From Candidatus Palauibacter scopulicola (GTDB lineage Bacteria > Gemmatimonadota > Gemmatimonadetes > Palauibacterales > Palauibacteraceae), in contig NZ_CANPWG010000003.1 of the NCBI RefSeq assembly GCF_947581915.1, positions 1 to 37,110 of the forward strand: a DNA stretch of 37,110 nucleotides. Direction: 5' to 3'. The notes below the pieces were generated by a model. The model was not told the DNA's origin, searched no databases, and worked only from the letters and a program-made list of their open reading frames with translations. Both the position numbers and the translations under genes were made by a program. Positions 5,203 through 13,440 of the stretch are shown piece by piece. Numbering within the stretch: position 1 is the first letter of the stretch; every line of letters starts with the position of its first letter.

Positions 5203-7011
5203 CTAGTTGGCGTTTGCGCTCCCGGTAGCGAGCGCGACGACCTCGATCGCGGCGTCACGCATCGTAACTGCGAGCGTGCGTCCGTCAGGGCTCAAGCTCG
5301 GCTGGAGTGCGCCGAGCGCGCCGGTCGTCACGGGTTCTGTCGCGCCGGTGGCGATGTCCACCCACCACACCTGGAAGGCCCCGACCCCGTCGTTGCGCGA
5401 GTAGAAGAGCGACCTGCCATCGGCGCCCCACTCGGGCGCGCTGTACGGTTCGCCATTGACGAATGAGACCACGGCGGTGGGCGCTCCTCCCGCGGCCGGC
5501 ACCGTGTAGACAGTGACGCGTCCGTCCTCGAGCGAGCGTCCGTAGAAGGCCAGCCGCTCCCCGTCCGGAGAGAACCGGGCTCCCATGGCGTACCCCTGGA
5601 ACCCGTCGAGCGGGACTCGGACGGGGTCGGCGGCCGCGCGTCCCGTGGCGGGATCGACGGCGACCGAGTACACCGACCCCGGGTTCCCTTCGAGCGGGGG
5701 GCCGTGACTGCTGAAAGCGAGCGTCCGCCCGTCCGGGCTCCAATCCGGCTCGCCCGTGTCCGCGCCCGGTCCGAAGTGTGTAAGTCGTGTGAGTCGCTCG
5801 CTCCCGCCGACCGGGACGAGCCATATGTCGTCGCTCTGCTCCACGTGTGAGTGGAAGGCGAGCCACCGGTCGTCGGGCGACCAGGCGGCTCCGTAGTCTT
5901 CACCCTCCTCCGAGAGGAGCGTTCGGGGCGCGCCGGCCGGGAGGCCCTCCGCATCGAGGTCAAGGGTGCCCAGGTCGAAATCGATCGGCATGCGGACGCG
6001 CCGCCAGGAGAAAGTGATGAATCCCAGCGCCCTCCCGCCGGGGTGCCAAGAAGGCAGAAAGGCGCTCGTGGCACCCGCCGTTGTCACATCGGTGGGTTCC
6101 CCTCCGGTCGCTGGCACGAGGCCCACCGCGGTGCGCGTATGGTACTCACTGAGCGCGACGCGCCCGTCGGCGAGCGGCGTGACCGCGAGCACGTCACGGC
6201 TGCGCTCCAGCCGTTCGGTCGGACTTCCGTCCAGCGGCACGCGCCAGGCGACAAAGAGGGAATCCCGGGTGCCCGCTGCCGCCAGATGGAGCGCTCTGCC
6301 CGTGGAGGACCACTCCACGCGGCGGTCCCATCCGAGACGGAGGTCGGCGGCGAGCGTGCGCGTCTCACCCGTCGCGAGCTCCGTCACGGCGAGGGCCGCG
6401 CGTCCGCCCGCGGAACGGAGGTATGCGACTGCGCGCCCGTCGGGCGATCGCACGGGCGCAACCCATCCGCCGGCGCCGTCGACGATTACGGATATCGCCC
6501 GACCGGCTCCCGGTGCGTACGCGACCCACGCCGTATCGGCGCCGGCGTATCGAAGCGCCGTCACCGTCCCATCGGGCAGCAATCGCGGATAGTCGATGCG
6601 GGTGTCTCCGGGATCCACGATGCGCGACTCCCGGCCGGAGGAGGGGTCCAGGGTCCAAACTCCATGACGGTCGGACTGGCGGTCGACGTAAACGATGCGG
6701 GAACCATCCGGCGACCACGTCACCCGCGTCCGTCCCCCCTGTGTCGCCGTCACCACGCGGCCGACCCCGGTCGCCACGTCGTAGACCGTCAGCGATCTCT
6801 TGTCCGCGGCATAGTCGGCGAATACGACTTGATCACCGGCGGGCGAGGGAATGCCCGGGTAAGCGTCGTAGAGGTCCGTGTGGACGTGTCGTGCGAGCAC
6901 GACCTCCGAGACCTCTTCGACGTTGCTCCCGCACGCCGCCGCCGAGAGTAGTGGCACTGCCGCGAGGCCGCGGCACACAGCCGGTAGCGGCCGGCTGAGC
7001 GTGAAGGTCAT
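5203..7011 (-). CDS. WD40-like (PD40/TolB-type) beta-propeller lipoprotein
   Basis: Predicted 602-residue exported lipoprotein with repeated PD40-type blades. SPDGR/SPDDR-type turns recur (WSPDGSRIVYV, WSPDDRWLAFH, WSPDGRTLAFSS, FSPDGERLAFYG, LSPDGRTLAVT), the hallmark of TolB and DPP-IV N-terminal propellers. The signal ends in SAAAC with Cys27 as likely lipidation site. No C-terminal hydrolase domain follows, so this is a propeller-only protein, probably a binding scaffold in the periplasm or on the outer membrane. GAGG about 9 bases before the ATG supports the start. It lies 28 bases after the GcvT/DmdA-type gene on the same strand and may share its transcript. Confidence 0.85.
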   Translation of the reverse strand: MTFTLSRPLPAVCRGLAAVPLLSAAACGSNVEEVSEVVLARHVHTDLYDAYPGIPSPAGDQVVFADYAADKRSLTVYDVATGVGRVVTATQGGRTRVTWSPDGSRIVYVDRQSDRHGVWTLDPSSGRESRIVDPGDTRIDYPRLLPDGTVTALRYAGADTAWVAYAPGAGRAISVIVDGAGGWVAPVRSPDGRAVAYLRSAGGRAALAVTELATGETRTLAADLRLGWDRRVEWSSTGRALHLAAAGTRDSLFVAWRVPLDGSPTERLERSRDVLAVTPLADGRVALSEYHTRTAVGLVPATGGEPTDVTTAGATSAFLPSWHPGGRALGFITFSWRRVRMPIDFDLGTLDLDAEGLPAGAPRTLLSEEGEDYGAAWSPDDRWLAFHSHVEQSDDIWLVPVGGSERLTRLTHFGPGADTGEPDWSPDGRTLAFSSHGPPLEGNPGSVYSVAVDPATGRAAADPVRVPLDGFQGYAMGARFSPDGERLAFYGRSLEDGRVTVYTVPAAGGAPTAVVSFVNGEPYSAPEWGADGRSLFYSRNDGVGAFQVWWVDIATGATEPVTTGALGALQPSLSPDGRTLAVTMRDAAIEVVALATGSANAN

Positions 7012-7039
7012 CCGGTCAACCTCGTCTGGAGCGTTTTCG

Positions 7040-8203
7040 CTAGGACTTGGGGATCTCCTTGCCCGGATCCACGAAGGGTCGGGGCACCACGACGGCGTCC
7101 CTCTCTCCGTCCGGCGTCGTCACGGCCAGGCGCGTGCCCAGCTCTCCGACCGCGGTCGGGACGAGGGCGTAGCCGATGTTCTTCCCGAGCCGCGGCGAAT
7201 ACACGGCGGACGTGACGAATCCGATCGCGCCGCCGTCCCCGTTCGCGCCGCCGCCGCGCACGGGCCAGCGGTCCATGTTCAGGTCGAGCGGCGCGCCCGA
7301 GATTTCGATGCCGGCGAGCAGCCTCCGGGGCCCCTCCTCGGCGATCCGGACCAGCGCCTCGCGGCCGATGAAGTCGCCCTCCTGGTCGAAATCGACCTGC
7401 CAGCCGAGCCCGACTTCGTACGGGTTCGTGTCCAGCGTCATGTCGATGCCGTAGTTGAGGATGCCGGCTTCGATGCGGCGGATGTCCGACGGGCCGGTGG
7501 GGGAGATGCCCAGGTCGCGGCCCGCTTCCAGCACGCGGTCCCACAGTTCGACGCCCCGGCTTCCGTCCCTCAGGTAGATTTCGTAGCCGACCTCGCCGCT
7601 CCACCCCGTCCGGGTCACGACCACGGGGATGCCGTCCAGGTCCGTCTCCAGGAACCAGTAGTAGGGGAGCTTGACGACGTCGTCCCCGAACAGCCGGCGC
7701 ACGACTTCCTTCGACTTCGGGCCCTGCACCTGCATGGGCGAGACGTCCGGCTCGCGGATCTCGACGTCGAGGCCGGCGTTGAGCGCGATCCCCTTCGCGT
7801 ACAGCAGCACGTCGCTGTCGGCCAGCGCGAGCCAGAAGTGATTCTCGGCGAGGCGCAGCAGCACCGGGTCGTTCACGATGCCCCCGTCGGCGGCGCCGAT
7901 GAGGACGTACTTGCCCTGCCCGACGGCACACTTCGACAGGTCCCGGGGCGTGAGCAGGTTCGTGAACTCGAAGGCGTCCGGCCCCGTGATCTCCACCTGC
8001 CGCTCGACGCTCACGTCCCACACCGTGACGCCGTTCAGGAGCTTCTCGTACTCCGCGTGCAGGTCGTCGTAGCGCGTCGGCAGAAACATGTGGTTGTAGA
8101 CCGTATAGCTCCGGCACCCGTCCCGGAGCGTGGCCTCGAAGTAGGGCGAACGGCGTAGCCGGGCCCCGCGCTGAATCAAGGCCATGTCAAAGGTTTCGGT
8201 CAT
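7040..8203 (-). CDS. GcvT-fold aminomethyltransferase/DmdA-like protein
   Basis: A 387-residue protein of the tetrahydrofolate-dependent GcvT family (glycine cleavage T protein, DMSP demethylase DmdA, sarcosine and dimethylglycine oxidase C-termini). Several stretches resemble DmdA more than GcvT as I remember them: SYTVYNHMFLPT, VWDVSVERQVEITG, LLTPRDLSK, IVNDPVLLRLAENHFWLALADSDV and YAKGIALNAGLDV. By contrast TRTGWSGEVGYEIYL resembles the GcvT version of that loop. It could therefore be a true DMSP demethylase or a demethylase for another methylated amine or sulfonium compound. There is no other glycine-cleavage gene nearby. GGAGGGGAG a few bases before the ATG is a strong ribosome-binding site. 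Family call firm, substrate open. Confidence 0.82.
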   Translation of the reverse strand: MTETFDMALIQRGARLRRSPYFEATLRDGCRSYTVYNHMFLPTRYDDLHAEYEKLLNGVTVWDVSVERQVEITGPDAFEFTNLLTPRDLSKCAVGQGKYVLIGAADGGIVNDPVLLRLAENHFWLALADSDVLLYAKGIALNAGLDVEIREPDVSPMQVQGPKSKEVVRRLFGDDVVKLPYYWFLETDLDGIPVVVTRTGWSGEVGYEIYLRDGSRGVELWDRVLEAGRDLGISPTGPSDIRRIEAGILNYGIDMTLDTNPYEVGLGWQVDFDQEGDFIGREALVRIAEEGPRRLLAGIEISGAPLDLNMDRWPVRGGGANGDGGAIGFVTSAVYSPRLGKNIGYALVPTAVGELGTRLAVTTPDGERDAVVVPRPFVDPGKEIPKS

Positions 8204-8313
8204 CGGGTCTCCCCTCCGGTCTACAGGTCTGGTGGCTTCGAGCGGGGACGAAATCAGTGTCGAAAAACGCCCTTGGGGTTTGCAGCGCGCAAGATCATAT
8301 GCGCCAACCTGAA

Positions 8314-8328
8314 CGGACGGCCAGTCCG
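8314..8328 (-). terminator. possible stem-loop after the Fic gene
   Basis: A perfect 5-base stem (CGGAC/GTCCG) with a 5-base loop lies just past the stop of the Fic gene. There is no T-tract, so it would be an atypical terminator; it may be chance in GC-rich DNA. Confidence 0.25.
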
Positions 8329-8335
8329 CCCGGGG

Positions 8336-9820
8336 TCAGCGCGGCATGCGCAGCCGCTTGCCTTCGGCCTCCGCTTCCGCAGGATCCAGGAAGGCGTGGC
8401 ACGCGTCGAGTTGCTGCTGCGTCTCGGGAATCGAAGTCCATTCGACCGCGATCGTCCAGCGCTGCGCGTAGTCGAGCGCCTGGATGAGCGGCTCCGGACG
8501 CCGCGTTCGCGACAACGCCCTCAGCGCGGCGAGGTAGTCGTCACGAAAGGCGGTCGGGATGACGACCCGCTCCGCTCCTCCGGCGACGAGTTCCGCGTTC
8601 ATCATCACGCGCGCGACACGCCCGTTGCCGTCGGCGAAGGGATGTACTTCGCTGACCAGGAACATCATGTAGACGGCGCGATCGAACGGCGATTCCAGGC
8701 TCCGGTAGAGGGCGAAGCCCTGTTCCAGCGTGCCGGGTACGAGGTCGGGGGCAACGAATACGGTCTGTCCGGCACGGTTGCCGGCCACCTTGAACTCGCC
8801 GGGTCCCGTCTCGGGCCGCTCGCTCATGATCCGCCGGTGGCGTCCCTGGAGAAGGCTCACGAAGGCTTCCGGATCCTCCGGCGTCCGGCGCATCTCCGCC
8901 CTGTCGGAAACGATACGCCAAGTCCCGATCACGTCGTGTGCGTCCGCCGGCCGTTGCGGCGGAATCCTGCCCTCAAACACGATTTCGACGGCTTCGCTCA
9001 CGAGGAACTCAGTTCCCTCGACGAAGTTGGAGAAGTACGCCTCAAAGAATGCCAGCGTCGTCGGCCCCGGTGAGTCGCGCCGCACCTCCGGTCTGTCGCG
9101 GGGAGGGTGGTCGCGAAGTGCCTGGTGCAGGGTGTGGAACAACTCCATCCGATCCGGGTCGTAGGCACGCCCGCGGCTGCGACCCCGTGCCACATGCGAA
9201 TCGAGCCGGCTCTCGCGCGTGCCGAGCAGCGTGCCGATGAGCGTGTCGAGGTGTGCGGCCTCCCGCTCCAGGTCGAGTTCGGTGGCGATCGCCCGGGCTT
9301 CGTCGCGCAGCCGGTTGATGGCTGCTTCGCCCGAGACGCGAATGAGACGATCGAGACGCTCTTCGACCTGGGCTTGTGTGAGCGTGCGCGGCACGCGACC
9401 GCTCCGGGCCCGCGATGGGCGCATGTTCTCCAGAAAGGCCCTGGCTTGCGAGCTGAGGTACAGGCCGTCGAGGAAGGGCATGTCTGATGAGATCGGCCCG
9501 GGTCCACGACGCGGGCGCAGCACGATGCCGGGCAGTTCGGTCGTCCTCCCGCGCTCGCTGACGAGGCAAACGGTTCCATCGGGAGCGGGAACGGTCTCAA
9601 AGGCGGTACGGTCCACGACCAGGGCCCCTGGAAAATATCCGGCGACGATCGCCCAGAGATTGCGCCGAACGATCTCCTCGGGAGAGTCCTCGAAGTTCTT
9701 CGTATAAAGGCGCGACGCCAGCTTCCGGAGTCTCCCCGCGCTCACGGCCCGGGATACCTCCCGGCTGATGGCCGTATGGGACACGAAAGCTTCGGGCAGT
9801 TCGTGCAACACCCGGTTCAT
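8336..9820 (-). CDS. Fic-domain protein (AMPylase-type) with AbiEi-like N-terminal winged helix and inhibitory helix
   Basis: A 494-residue Fic family protein, predicted to transfer AMP or another nucleotide part to a hydroxyl of a target protein. The complete Fic motif HPFADGNGRVAR is at residues 393-404, with catalytic His393. At 264-269, SNFVEG matches the (S/T)xxxE(G/N) inhibitory-helix motif, placed before the Fic core as in self-inhibited Fic proteins. The N-terminal ~110 residues (TAISREVSRAVSAGRLRKLA, RLYT, GALVVDRTAFE) look like the winged-helix start of AbiEi-type antitoxins, which bind DNA; this second call is by pattern only. The gene stands alone behind a promoter flanked by repeats, so self-regulation is plausible. 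A weak GGAT precedes the ATG. Confidence 0.9.
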   Translation of the reverse strand: MNRVLHELPEAFVSHTAISREVSRAVSAGRLRKLASRLYTKNFEDSPEEIVRRNLWAIVAGYFPGALVVDRTAFETVPAPDGTVCLVSERGRTTELPGIVLRPRRGPGPISSDMPFLDGLYLSSQARAFLENMRPSRARSGRVPRTLTQAQVEERLDRLIRVSGEAAINRLRDEARAIATELDLEREAAHLDTLIGTLLGTRESRLDSHVARGRSRGRAYDPDRMELFHTLHQALRDHPPRDRPEVRRDSPGPTTLAFFEAYFSNFVEGTEFLVSEAVEIVFEGRIPPQRPADAHDVIGTWRIVSDRAEMRRTPEDPEAFVSLLQGRHRRIMSERPETGPGEFKVAGNRAGQTVFVAPDLVPGTLEQGFALYRSLESPFDRAVYMMFLVSEVHPFADGNGRVARVMMNAELVAGGAERVVIPTAFRDDYLAALRALSRTRRPEPLIQALDYAQRWTIAVEWTSIPETQQQLDACHAFLDPAEAEAEGKRLRMPR

Positions 9821-10029: not shown

Positions 10030-11334
10030 TCAGGCCGGGATGCCGTGCTTCACCGCGCGGGTCATCGCGTCCACGAAGCGGTCGAGTTCCTCGAGCGTCG
10101 TGTAGGTGGACGGCGAGATGCGGAGCCCCGTGAACTCGGCGTGGTTGATGCCGACCGTGAAGATCCGGTGCCGGTTCCACAGCCAGTTGCGGAGCGCGCT
10201 CGTGTCGATGCCCTCGACCTGGACGTTGGCGATCCCGCACGCGAAGCCCGGCTTGAGGCTCGTGTTGAGCCGCACGCGGTCGTGCTCGAGGAGCTGCTCG
10301 GCCCAGTAGTTCCGCAGGTGTACGAGGCGCGCCTCCTTGCGCTCGCCGCCGACGAGCTGGTGAAAGGTGAGCGCTTCGCCGATGGCGAGGAAGTTGGCCT
10401 CGGGGTGCGTGCCGATCGCCTCGAACTTCCGGATGTCGTCGTCTCGGCTCTCAGCCGCGGCCTGCAGCGGCCAGATCTCGGGGATCTTCTCCCGCCTCAC
10501 GTAGAGGAGGCCGGTCCCGACCGGGGCGTGCAGCCACTTGTGCAGGCTGACGGCGTAGTTGTCGCAGTTCAGATCGGAGAGGGTAAAATCATGGTGTGCA
10601 AGTGAATGGGCGCCGTCGACGAGGACCGGGATGCCGTAGCCGCGCGCCATCTCCACGACCTCGCGCACGGGCAGGATCTGTCCGGTGATGTTGATCATGT
10701 GGCACATGAGGATGAGCCGCGTGCGGTCGGTGATCTGCTCCTCGAACAGTCGCACGATTTCGGCCGGATCCTCGGCCGGGATGGGGATCTTGAACTGCTT
10801 CATCACGATTCCCTCGCGGCGCTCGCGCTGCTGGAAGGTCGTGATCATGCGCCCGTAGTCCTGGGTCGTCGTCACGACTTCGTCGCCGCGCTCGAGGTCG
10901 TACCCGTTCTGGAGGATCTGGAGGCCCTCGGACGCGTTGCGCGTGATCGCGACCTCCTCCGGGTCCACGTCCCACTGCCGGGCGAGCCGGGCCCGGACGC
11001 CCTCCCGCTGCGGCTCCAGGATCTGCCACCCGTTGTAGACCGGGATCTGGTTCGCGAAGTCGAGGTCCCGCTTCATCGCCTCGAGCACGTGGGCGGGCGT
11101 CGGACTCACGCCCCCGTTATTGAGGTTGACGAGAGAGCGGTCGGTGGTGAACGCCTTCTGGATCTCGATCCAGAACTCCTCGTCGCGCGCGATCTCCTCG
11201 GCGGAGCCGGGCGTGCGGGACAGGTCGCGGGCCGCCGCGACCGCGGTGCTCCACTTCGTGGGAACGACGGTCATGGCTCCGGCGGCAGCGGCGGAGCCCC
11301 CGAGGCGGGCGAGGAATCGTCGGCGGGTGGGCAT
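10030..11334 (-). CDS. Tat-exported class V aminotransferase-fold PLP enzyme
   Basis: A 434-residue PLP-dependent enzyme of the class V fold (cysteine desulfurase, selenocysteine lyase, isopenicillin-N epimerase-like group). The N-terminus carries TRRRFLARLGG, a twin-arginine signal followed by an Ala-rich hydrophobic core, so it is predicted to be exported already folded with cofactor. The PLP pocket is visible: NASEGLQ at about 133-139, VDGAH at 239-243 (Asp240 for the pyridine N), and SLHKWLHAP with the Schiff-base Lys266. AGGAGG just before the ATG at 11334 fixes the start; upstream in-frame codons are less likely. It lies 103 bases after the selenoprotein gene on the same strand. The substrate is unknown; selenocysteine chemistry is not implied by the fold alone. 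Confidence 0.88.
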   Translation of the reverse strand: MPTRRRFLARLGGSAAAAGAMTVVPTKWSTAVAAARDLSRTPGSAEEIARDEEFWIEIQKAFTTDRSLVNLNNGGVSPTPAHVLEAMKRDLDFANQIPVYNGWQILEPQREGVRARLARQWDVDPEEVAITRNASEGLQILQNGYDLERGDEVVTTTQDYGRMITTFQQRERREGIVMKQFKIPIPAEDPAEIVRLFEEQITDRTRLILMCHMINITGQILPVREVVEMARGYGIPVLVDGAHSLAHHDFTLSDLNCDNYAVSLHKWLHAPVGTGLLYVRREKIPEIWPLQAAAESRDDDIRKFEAIGTHPEANFLAIGEALTFHQLVGGERKEARLVHLRNYWAEQLLEHDRVRLNTSLKPGFACGIANVQVEGIDTSALRNWLWNRHRIFTVGINHAEFTGLRISPSTYTTLEELDRFVDAMTRAVKHGIPA

Positions 11335-11437
11335 GCGGCCTCCTGGCTGGTTCGATACCGATCCGGCAGCTGTCAATTGGGCCGTTTTCGGCGCCGCGAG
11401 CAAGTCCGGCGCCCGCCGCGCCCGGCGGCCCGACGCG

Positions 11438-11992
11438 TCAGTCCGACGCCGTGATCATGGCGAGGATCGGGTCGATCGCCTCGTCCGCCAGCGCCTCGAG
11501 TTCGGCGGCGGTGCGGTTCTGGATGGGGTGCGGGACCCAGACGATGCCGGGCTCGAAGCCGAGCGTGCGCGACTGGCTGTGCGCCGCCTCCTCGAACTCG
11601 GTCGTGACGACGAAGCAGCCGGGGATCCCGCGTTCATCGAGGTCTCTGAGATCGTGCAGACCGCACGACGTGCAGGACCCTCAATCGGCCAATGCCTGCA
11701 CCACGACATCGGCCTCCGTGGCGATCCTCTGGAGCAATTCGGTCGGGGCCCGGCGCGCGTTGGTCGGCTTGTCCGTGCGGATCGTCGCGATGCCGCGCGC
11801 ATCGAGCCGCGTCTTCACGTGGTCGAGGAACTCGTCGCTGCGGAGCTTGCCGATCCCCTGCAGCGCCACCACGCGTCCTTCGAGCGACGGGGGAGGTGCC
11901 CGCCGCGGGCGCATCTCCGGGGCGAGTTCGGAGGTCGGGTCGTGGAGGACGGAGGCCGGCGTCGCCGGATTCGCTGCGGTCAGAGCGGTCAT
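11438..11992 (-). CDS. UGSC-type selenoprotein with in-frame TGA as selenocysteine
   Basis: A 184-residue protein read through an in-frame TGA at 11681-11683 (residue 104). The reading frame continues 80 codons past it to a second TGA at 11438-11440. Around it the product reads ALAD-U-GSCTSCG, so the redox centre is UGSC followed by another Cys. The downstream part is clearly protein-like (LHDLRDLDERGIPGCFVVTTEF, GFEPGIVWVPHPIQNRTA). I recall a family named for this motif (UGSC-containing selenoprotein); its biochemical role is not known to me. A SECIS-type hairpin follows the UGA. The ATG overlaps the stop of the thioredoxin-fusion gene in an ATGA arrangement. A standard annotation would truncate the product at residue 103. 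A redox role is inferred from the Sec/Cys motif and the partner. Confidence 0.9.
11651..11669 (-). promoter_or_regulatory. bacterial SECIS hairpin for selenocysteine insertion
   Basis: In the mRNA, beginning 12 bases after the UGA, GUCGUGC pairs with GCACGAU (six Watson-Crick pairs plus one G-U) around the apical loop GGUCU. The loop starts 18 bases past the UGA and opens with two G residues, which fits the known bacterial SECIS layout. The loop and neighbouring UGC/GCA pairs resemble the E. coli fdhF element bound by SelB, from memory. Confidence 0.85.
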
Positions 11993-13440
11993 GTCTCGAT
12001 CTCTCTCGTGATGGGGTGTGAGTGCTGCCAGGCGCGGCCGCCGGGCCAGCCGGCCAGGATGGCGGAGTACAGTCCGGCCGCGCCGCCGGCCCGGGCAAGG
12101 AGCAGTCCCCCGGGCGGGAACTTGGGCACGTGGCGGCGCGTCTCCGAGTCCGGCACCCCCTCGGCCAGGCCCCCCGCGCCGCGCGTCACCTCGCTCAGCG
12201 GTCGCGTCGTCGCCTCGAGCAGCGCCTCGGTGATCCGCGCCCGGCCCCAGCCCGCCTCCCGGTAGATGGCGTAGTGCTCGGGCGAGAGGAGCAGCACCGC
12301 ATGTGCCCACTCGCAGATCTTCGGATGGCACACGGCCAGCAGGCACGCCGCCAGCGACGCGGTCAGTTCCTCCGGCGTGCGCGAGCGCTGGTCCATGATC
12401 CCCTGCACACCCTCCCCCTGGAAGAGTGTGACCGCGCTCACCCCGGCCGGGACGCCGCGCGACACCGAGAGCGGTTCCCACTCCTCGTCCGACTCATCCT
12501 CCGCGAAACAGAACGTGTACTTGCTGGGGGCCCCGAAGGTGGAGCGGTCGATCTCGCCGGGCCGGCCGCCGCCGACGTTGCGCACGATGAGGTTGAGGGC
12601 ACGTCCGATGGTCGCGTTGGCGCGGTTTCCCTGGCCAAGGACGTTCAGCCCCGAATTCATCCCGATGCGGCGGGCGATCGCGCCGTTGACGATGACGAGG
12701 GGCGCGGTGAAGCACGTGCTGCACAGGATCCCGTGCAGCGTGAAGTCGGGGTCGAGCGCCGCCTCGAGCGCCGCGAGCACGACGGGCATGTATTCCGGCT
12801 TGCAGCCCGCGAGCACGGCGTTGATCGCGACCTTCTCCACCGTGCACTCCCCGTAGTCCGGCGGCACGGTGCCCAGGATCTCGTCCGGAGCCCGGGGCGT
12901 GCCCGCGAGCATGCGCAGGATCCGCTCCGGAGTTGGCGGGACGACGGGCAGCCCGTCCGTCCACCCGCGCTCGAAGCACGCTTCGAGGGCGTCCGCATGC
13001 GGTTCCAGCGCCACCTGCCGCGCTTCGAGGCCGGTTTCCCCGAAGCGCGCGCGCAGCCGCTCCGCCGCGCCGGGTTCGACGGACCGCGAACCGCAGCCCG
13101 GCTGGAACTCGGGCAGTTCCGCACCCAGGTCCGGAATCGACGTCAGATCGCGCCACTCCGCCCGGTTCCAGCCCACCGCGCGGCCCGCCTCCTTCCCGTC
13201 CTCGAAGCGCACGAGGGTGGGGACGGTCTCGATCCCGAGGTGGAAGGATTGTTCGAGTTCCGTGTCGTCGACCCCGCCGGAAAGCGCCGCGGGAAAGTCC
13301 GGGTCGTCCTGGCTGAGAACCACGAGACCGCCGGGACCGTCGGCGAGCCGCTCAAGCACCGGTTCGACCAGCCGACACGTGGGGCAGTCGCGCTTCACCA
13401 CGACCGCGAGCCCTTCCTGCGGGAGCGGAGAGTGTTCCAT
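11989..13440 (-). CDS. thioredoxin-domain fusion protein, partner of the UGSC selenoprotein
   Basis: A 483-residue protein with two parts. Residues 1 to about 105 form a thioredoxin fold: redox motif CPTC at 19-22 and the cis-Pro segment ETVPTLVRFEDG near 71-82. After a linker containing PGCGSRSVEP, residues from about 145 form a large domain I cannot name. Its features are ERGWTDGLPVVPPT, a CSTC motif at 240-243, IGMNSGLNVLGQGNRANATIGR, and ALEAALDPDF. The stop overlaps the start of the selenoprotein gene (ATGA), indicating coupled translation and probably a shared complex or redox relay. I chose the ATG at 13440 because upstream codons read as Arg-rich noise and the thioredoxin fold begins here. 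No signal peptide, so cytoplasmic. Confidence 0.83.
   Translation of the reverse strand: MEHSPLPQEGLAVVVKRDCPTCRLVEPVLERLADGPGGLVVLSQDDPDFPAALSGGVDDTELEQSFHLGIETVPTLVRFEDGKEAGRAVGWNRAEWRDLTSIPDLGAELPEFQPGCGSRSVEPGAAERLRARFGETGLEARQVALEPHADALEACFERGWTDGLPVVPPTPERILRMLAGTPRAPDEILGTVPPDYGECTVEKVAINAVLAGCKPEYMPVVLAALEAALDPDFTLHGILCSTCFTAPLVIVNGAIARRIGMNSGLNVLGQGNRANATIGRALNLIVRNVGGGRPGEIDRSTFGAPSKYTFCFAEDESDEEWEPLSVSRGVPAGVSAVTLFQGEGVQGIMDQRSRTPEELTASLAACLLAVCHPKICEWAHAVLLLSPEHYAIYREAGWGRARITEALLEATTRPLSEVTRGAGGLAEGVPDSETRRHVPKFPPGGLLLARAGGAAGLYSAILAGWPGGRAWQHSHPITREIET

What the first reader, a model, noticed from the sequence alone, without database searches (positions are those of the whole stretch)
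11438..11992. UGSC-type selenoprotein hidden by an in-frame TGA
Reading through the TGA at 11681-11683 joins two coding halves of one 184-residue protein with the centre U-G-S-C-T-S-C. The downstream 80 codons are protein-like and in frame. A hairpin (11651-11669) has six Watson-Crick pairs, a GGUCU loop and an 18-base gap from UGA to loop, as expected for a bacterial SECIS and close to that of E. coli fdhF. A normal gene caller would truncate it at residue 103. I recall a UGSC-named selenoprotein family of unknown biochemistry; selenium use in this lineage would be notable.
Basis: partly seen in the sequence, partly recalled or inferred. Interest (0 to 1): 0.88.

Follow-up and report, generated by a model that had tools for sequence, protein, structure and literature searches.

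The report
UGSC selenoprotein with thioredoxin-linked partner
A sponge- and coral-associated bacterium (genus Palauibacter) almost certainly reads this in-frame stop codon as selenocysteine, making a protein of the known but functionally unsolved UGSC family; the gene always sits beside a thioredoxin-linked partner and resembles the selenium domain of glycine reductase, which suggests how it might work.

Summary
The finding holds, on the minus strand. The ORF 11992→11438 has one in-frame TGA (11683-11681) at residue 104 of 184. The read-through protein matches Pfam UGSC (PF24696, 115.5 bits, cut-off 25) across residue 104. The genome has tRNA-Sec, selA, selB and selD. All 48 clear homologues found among 395 Gemmatimonadota genomes carry one TGA; in a collection of 62 loci, 37 are Sec and 25 are Cys (CGSC) forms. 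The hairpin is a SECIS by comparison: all six core pairs form in 38/38 Sec genes but 8/25 Cys genes, and the loop codon is GGT in 37/38 against 24/382 for other glycines. It is therefore a new member of a known selenoprotein family. Selenium use is common in this lineage. New leads on function: (1) an uncharacterised partner, fused to thioredoxin here, lies next to UGSC wherever contigs allow and is fused to it on an Acidovorax plasmid; (2) UGSC is distantly related to the Sec domain of GrdB; (3) the predicted fold is flavodoxin-like, not thioredoxin-like as published. Best explanation: the Sec-bearing catalytic half of a thioredoxin-dependent two-protein reductase. Substrate unknown.

The parts
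11438..11992 (-). UGSC-family selenoprotein gene, 184 codons (ATG at 11992-11990, TGA=Sec at codon 104, terminal stop TGA 11440-11438)
   Evidence: Read-through translation; Pfam PF24696 115.5 bits over residues 16-181, NCBIfam NF041046 120.9 bits; conserved with TGA in relatives
11681..11683 (-). In-frame TGA read as selenocysteine (residue 104)
   Evidence: TGA in 38/38 Sec-type sequences compared, TGC/TGT in 25 Cys-type homologues at the same codon
11651..11669 (-). bSECIS hairpin: 6 Watson-Crick pairs plus an outer G-U, loop GGUCU (11662-11658)
   Evidence: Fold; covariation and loop constraint in Sec genes but not in Cys genes
11989..13440 (-). Partner gene, 483 aa from the ATG at 13440 (open to GTG 13485): thioredoxin domain fused to an uncharacterised 'DGLPVVPPT' domain; 4-bp ATGA overlap with the UGSC gene
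   Evidence: Translation; thioredoxin match; adjacent to UGSC in all 61 of the 62 fetched loci in which it could be seen, the other being at a contig end; co-occurs genome by genome
13126..13416 (-). Thioredoxin-like domain of the partner (C-P-T-C motif here; first C, the T and second C nearly invariant in the alignment)
11992..12993 (-). C-terminal partner domain with no Pfam model (invariant AGC and (F)CxxE cysteines)
   Evidence: 0 of 18 members have a significant Pfam hit; invariant columns in A8

Best explanation
The gene makes a genuine selenoprotein of the UGSC family. UGA codon 104 is decoded as Sec by tRNA-Sec/SelB with the help of a SECIS hairpin directly downstream (shown by comparison, not by experiment). 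The protein is most likely the catalytic Sec subunit of a two-protein, thioredoxin-dependent reductase made with the overlapping upstream gene product. The partner's uncharacterised domain would hold the substrate. Sec104 in U-G-S-C-x-x-C would attack it, as the Sec of GrdB/PrdB is thought to do, and reductively break or reduce a bond in a small organic metabolite. The resulting Se-S bond with Cys107 would be reduced by the partner's own thioredoxin domain, recharged by thioredoxin reductase and NADPH. Shown: gene, SECIS, Sec machinery, obligate pairing, thioredoxin fusion, distant homology to the GrdB Sec domain. Inferred: complex formation, reaction type, electron path. Unknown: substrate.
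For: Family: PF24696 115.5 bits, NF041046 120.9. Machinery: tRNA-Sec 79.7 bits, selA 484.7, selB 370.5, selD 366.1, itself with an in-frame TGA at the usual Sec site. TGA in all 48 clear homologues of 395 Gemmatimonadota genomes. SECIS: six pairs in 38/38 Sec and 8/25 Cys genes; GC to AU double change at two synonymous sites (24 GC, 14 AU, none broken); loop codon GGT 37/38 against 24/382 elsewhere. Partner: adjacent in every locus whose contig extends; 47 of 48 genomes shared, log10 p about -58, and the two exceptions lie at contig ends. Fused to UGSC on Acidovorax p2-T1; trxB-trxA-partner-UGSC in Arthrobacter. GrdB link: all 37 members hit TIGR01917 (best 1.4e-5); hhalign probability 87, E 3.8e-6, Sec on Sec and both cysteines aligned; a Gemmatimonadota GrdB itself reads U-G-S-C-N-R-C-G.
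Against: No experiment here shows selenium in the protein, a complex, or activity. The partner has no detectable similarity to the pyruvoyl subunits GrdG or PrdA, so the glycine-reductase chemistry cannot simply be transferred. The GrdB similarity covers only about 88 columns and is weak. Neighbours beyond the pair differ between lineages, so no substrate can be read from context.
Confidence: 0.68

Rival explanations
1. UGSC is a general thiol/selenol oxidoreductase or peroxidase-type antioxidant with a thioredoxin-like fold, as the marine metagenome literature assumes, and the partner is its electron donor only.
For: UxxC motif; thioredoxin domain in the partner; [quoted passage not shown]
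Against: AlphaFold2 model (pLDDT 91.5) shows five strands alternating with helices, and the PDB fold search returns flavodoxin-, TIR- and FMN-reductase-like folds, with no thioredoxin among the 50 matches listed. The partner has a 330-residue conserved domain beyond its thioredoxin part. The family is sporadic: 48 of 395 genomes of the phylum.
Confidence: 0.2
2. The TGA is a true stop and the 103-residue product is the functional protein; downstream similarity is a decaying pseudogene or an assembly or sequencing error.
For: Standard gene callers would end the gene there.
Against: The same TGA in 38 sequences from many assemblies, an intact conserved downstream half, mainly third-position changes downstream, SECIS covariation, Cys homologues running through, and complete Sec machinery.
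Confidence: 0.02
3. UGSC and its partner act in one particular catabolic route, for example breakdown of a betaine or carnitine or a sulfonate, so that the pair is a substrate-specific reductive lyase like betaine reductase.
For: A BKACE (3-keto acid cleavage) family gene lies upstream of the pair in several Bacteroidota and a few kb from it in Halorientalis; a DMSP-demethylase-like GcvT protein lies nearby in the window; phosphosulfolactate synthase lies nearby in Arthrobacter and Natrinema.
Against: None of these neighbours recurs across lineages, and other loci show a dicarboxylate transporter, acyl-CoA ligases or KARI instead.
Confidence: 0.1

Closest known systems
UGSC-containing (seleno)proteins (Pfam PF24696, NCBIfam NF041046; prominent in the Global Ocean Sampling data, PMC2398784)
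   Same: Sequence over the whole length, U-G-S-C motif, Sec in some lineages and Cys in others, bSECIS.
   Different: The window's subfamily scores just under the NCBIfam equivalog cut-off (120.9 of 125) and has a thioredoxin-fused partner; related Gemmatimonadota of other genera carry forms above the cut-off.
GrdB / PrdB (selenoprotein B of glycine, sarcosine and betaine reductase, and D-proline reductase; PF07355, TIGR01917)
   Same: Sec-containing segment aligns Sec on Sec with the U-G-(S/T)-C-x-x-C motif and its flanks; thioredoxin system as electron source in both (for glycine reductase from general knowledge).
   Different: UGSC lacks the approximately 330-residue N-terminal part of GrdB, and its partner is not a pyruvoyl subunit.
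Thioredoxin
   Same: The partner's N-terminal domain is thioredoxin-like with CxTC.
   Different: UGSC itself is not predicted to have this fold.

Membership tests
UGSC family (PF24696 / NF041046) | Pfam gathering score 25 bits | tested here: met
   115.5 bits, residues 16-181 on profile 2-171 of 172
UGSC family (PF24696 / NF041046) | NCBIfam equivalog cut-off 125 bits | tested here: not met
   120.9 bits with C in place of U; 113.7 bits in the genome search. It is a divergent subfamily; NCBI's rule would not name it, although it covers profile 2-146 of 147
UGSC family (PF24696 / NF041046) | [U/C]-G-S-C motif with Sec/Cys exchange among homologues | tested here: met
   37 Sec and 25 Cys loci; motif invariant in 37 aligned members
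Bacterial selenoprotein | In-frame UGA followed by a bSECIS with the right spacing and conserved loop | tested here: met
   Cys-form control
Bacterial selenoprotein | selA, selB, selC and selD in the genome | tested here: met
Bacterial selenoprotein | Selenium in the protein | not testable with these tools
   needs 75Se labelling or mass spectrometry
GrdB/PrdB family | Homologous Sec domain | tested here: met
   37/37 members hit TIGR01917; hhalign probability 87, E 3.8e-6; remote similarity only
GrdB/PrdB family | Full-length match to the family model | tested here: not met
   Only profile 333-399 of 431 aligned, 15.7 bits against a cut-off of 602; the GrdB N-terminal part is absent
GrdB/PrdB family | Pyruvoyl proprotein partner (GrdE/GrdG or PrdA) | tested here: not met
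   Partner against GrdG and PrdA: hhalign probability 0.6 and 0.1
Thioredoxin-fold selenoproteins | Thioredoxin fold of the Sec domain | tested here: not met
   Predicted alternating beta/alpha sandwich with Sec between strand 3 and its helix; fold search lists flavodoxin/TIR-like matches

The most novel reading that the evidence does not exclude
UGSC and its obligate partner form a previously unrecognised family of thioredoxin-coupled reductive enzymes, found in aerobic bacteria and halophilic archaea, that uses a GrdB-like selenol (or thiol) with a new, non-pyruvoyl substrate subunit. It would be an aerobic counterpart of glycine/proline reductase.
Probability: 0.35. Interest if true: 0.78.

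Novelty: new member of a known kind. Interest (0 to 1): 0.5.

Why it matters
UGSC proteins are among the most abundant selenoproteins in marine metagenomes (PMC2398784, PMC9402790), yet a 2026 review still counts them among selenoproteins whose function is largely uncharacterised (PMC13188914). The conserved UGSC-partner-thioredoxin unit, its fusions, and the GrdB relationship turn that into a testable biochemical question with a defined two-protein system. It also shows that automatic annotation cuts these genes at the TGA and that the window's subfamily falls below the current NCBI naming threshold.

Tried and rejected
Plus-strand reading of the coordinates: unrelated protein, and the plus-strand fold is not better than shuffles. 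Rfam: no SECIS match; the only hit is a chance snoRNA at E 3.5. Thioredoxin fold for UGSC: not supported. PDB relatives by sequence: none for UGSC and none for GrdB/PrdB. Partner as a GrdE/PrdA-type pyruvoyl protein: no similarity. Partner as a class I fumarase relative: Foldseek E 5e-4 but TM-score 0.22 and a low-confidence core, not used. Neighbourhood as a guide to substrate: inconsistent. In Palauibacter the PLP enzyme usually follows UGSC, but not always directly (L065), and it is not a constant neighbour elsewhere. Phage origin: no match.

Full report
What is there. The feature lies on the minus strand. Reading 11992→11438 with TGA as Sec gives a 184-residue protein with U104 in D-U-G-S-C-T-S-C-G. 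Third-position GC is high on both sides of the TGA (0.87 and 0.93), and in twelve close relatives changes are concentrated at third positions in both halves. The gene starts inside the stop of an upstream gene (ATGA, 11992-11989), so the two are probably translated as a pair.

Family. The protein scores 115.5 bits against Pfam UGSC (cut-off 25) and 120.9 against NCBIfam UGSC_fam (cut-off 125, just missed). The match runs through residue 104. The NCBIfam miss reflects a subfamily difference: other Gemmatimonadota genera carry forms above the cut-off.

Genome and lineage. Homologous loci are labelled Candidatus Palauibacter and other Gemmatimonadota; by kinship the window genome belongs with them. 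It has tRNA-Sec (79.7 bits against a cut-off of 47; ARAGORN agrees), selA, selB and selD, and the selD gene itself has an in-frame TGA at the usual site (G-U-A-C-K). Selenium use is common here: 67 of 80 relatives have selA over the cut-off. Among 80 relatives UGSC occurs in 16 of the 17 genomes of the genus (own included), in none of the other genera of its family sampled, and again in one other family of the class. Across 395 genomes of the phylum there are 48 clear cases, each gene with exactly one TGA.

Sec against Cys. In the GTDB collection 62 loci were found: 37 Sec and 25 Cys at the same codon, the Cys forms in Proteobacteria and Bacteroidota. Of 20 genomes checked, all 4 Sec-form genomes have selA over the cut-off, against 4 of 16 Cys-form genomes.

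SECIS. The hairpin has six Watson-Crick pairs, an outer G-U, a GGUCU loop and an 18-nt spacer. In 38 Sec genes all six pairs form in every case; in 25 Cys genes they form in 8. One pair shows a double change, G-C in 24 and A-U in 14 with no mismatch, at two synonymous third positions; in Cys genes the same pair is broken in 11 of 24 distinct sequences. The loop codon is GGT in 37 of 38, while other glycines of the same genes use GGT in 24 of 382. Many of these sequences are related, so the counts are not independent, but the Cys control differs in the expected direction. The similarity to the fdhF SECIS loop is from general knowledge and was not tested.

Partner gene. The upstream gene (13440→11989) has an N-terminal thioredoxin domain with C-P-T-C and a C-terminal domain with no significant Pfam match in any of 18 members. 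Its homologue is next to UGSC in every locus whose contig reaches far enough, Sec and Cys alike. By genome the two coincide in 47 of 48 cases of each (log10 p about -58); the two exceptions, G263 and G139, lie at contig ends. In the two Natrinema plasmids the partner lacks thioredoxin and follows UGSC; Halorientalis has a partner copy on each side. In Arthrobacter the order is trxB-trxA-partner-UGSC. On Acidovorax plasmid p2-T1 a TGA-containing UGSC and the partner form one reading frame, annotated only as a 96-codon hypothetical protein. A UGSC/'Unknown_1' fusion was already noted in 2008 (PMC2398784); whether Unknown_1 is this partner could not be checked.

Fold and remote relatives. AlphaFold2 gives a confident alternating beta/alpha sandwich (pLDDT 91.5) with Sec at the turn between strand 3 and its helix. 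The fold search lists TIR, flavodoxin and FMN-reductase folds at modest TM-scores (about 0.4-0.5) and no thioredoxin among the 50 shown. This argues against the published suggestion of a Trx-like fold. All 37 aligned members hit glycine reductase selenoprotein B (best E 1.4e-5). A profile comparison with three GrdB-type proteins gives probability 87 and E 3.8e-6 over 88 columns, Sec on Sec. A GrdB from the same phylum carries U-G-S-C-N-R-C-G. The partner shows no similarity to GrdG, PrdA or GrdB, so UGSC is not a member of the glycine/proline reductase systems, though it may work like their Sec subunit.

Mechanism. The most likely reading is a two-protein reductase: the partner holds the substrate, Sec104 is nucleophile or reductant, Cys107 resolves the Se-S bond, and the partner's thioredoxin domain (or a separate TrxA/TrxB) restores it. 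The thioredoxin link, the pairing and the GrdB-like motif are shown; complex, reaction and electron path are inferred. The substrate is not suggested by any constant neighbour.

Novelty. The selenoprotein is a new member of a known family. I found no paper, among the eight held papers that name UGSC together with selenoproteins or selenocysteine, that reports the GrdB relationship or the thioredoxin-linked partner in the passages read, but most subscription papers are not in that library, and one of the eight (PMC7435645) was seen only in the search list.

Noticed in passing
G000 contig C30:54584-55510 (L061): selD of this genome is itself a selenoprotein gene (Y-S-H-G-A-G-U-A-C-K-L), with an in-frame TGA.
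   Followed up: partly
L128 (Acidovorax sp. T1 plasmid p2-T1) about 6986-8700: UGSC with an in-frame TGA continues in one frame into the partner domain; the record annotates only a 96-codon hypothetical protein.
   Followed up: partly
L130 (Arthrobacter sp. ERGS1:01 plasmid) 5567-8741: Gene order trxB-trxA-partner-UGSC (Cys form), with phosphosulfolactate synthase upstream; the latter also lies near UGSC in Natrinema zhouii (L127).
   Followed up: partly
window 10030-11403 (-): PLP enzyme most like PvdN/EgtE/SufS models but far below their cut-offs, with a Tat-like N-terminus; follows UGSC in most Palauibacter genomes but is not a constant neighbour elsewhere.
   Followed up: partly
window 7040-8203 (-): GcvT-family protein scoring 386 of 410 bits for dimethylsulfoniopropionate demethylase.
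   Followed up: no
L133-L141 (Gemmatimonadota relatives): Short proteins (about 160-215 aa) matching only the C-terminal Sec region of GrdB (PF07355), in genomes without UGSC; possibly another small branch of this domain.
   Followed up: no
L091:1678-2568 and similar Bacteroidota loci: A BKACE-family (3-keto acid cleavage) gene lies directly upstream of the Cys-form pair in several Bacteroidota.
   Followed up: partly
L148 (G259:C100): Two copies of the partner domain on one short contig with a single UGSC gene.
   Followed up: no
window 8336-9820 (-): Fic-domain protein two genes downstream of UGSC.
   Followed up: no
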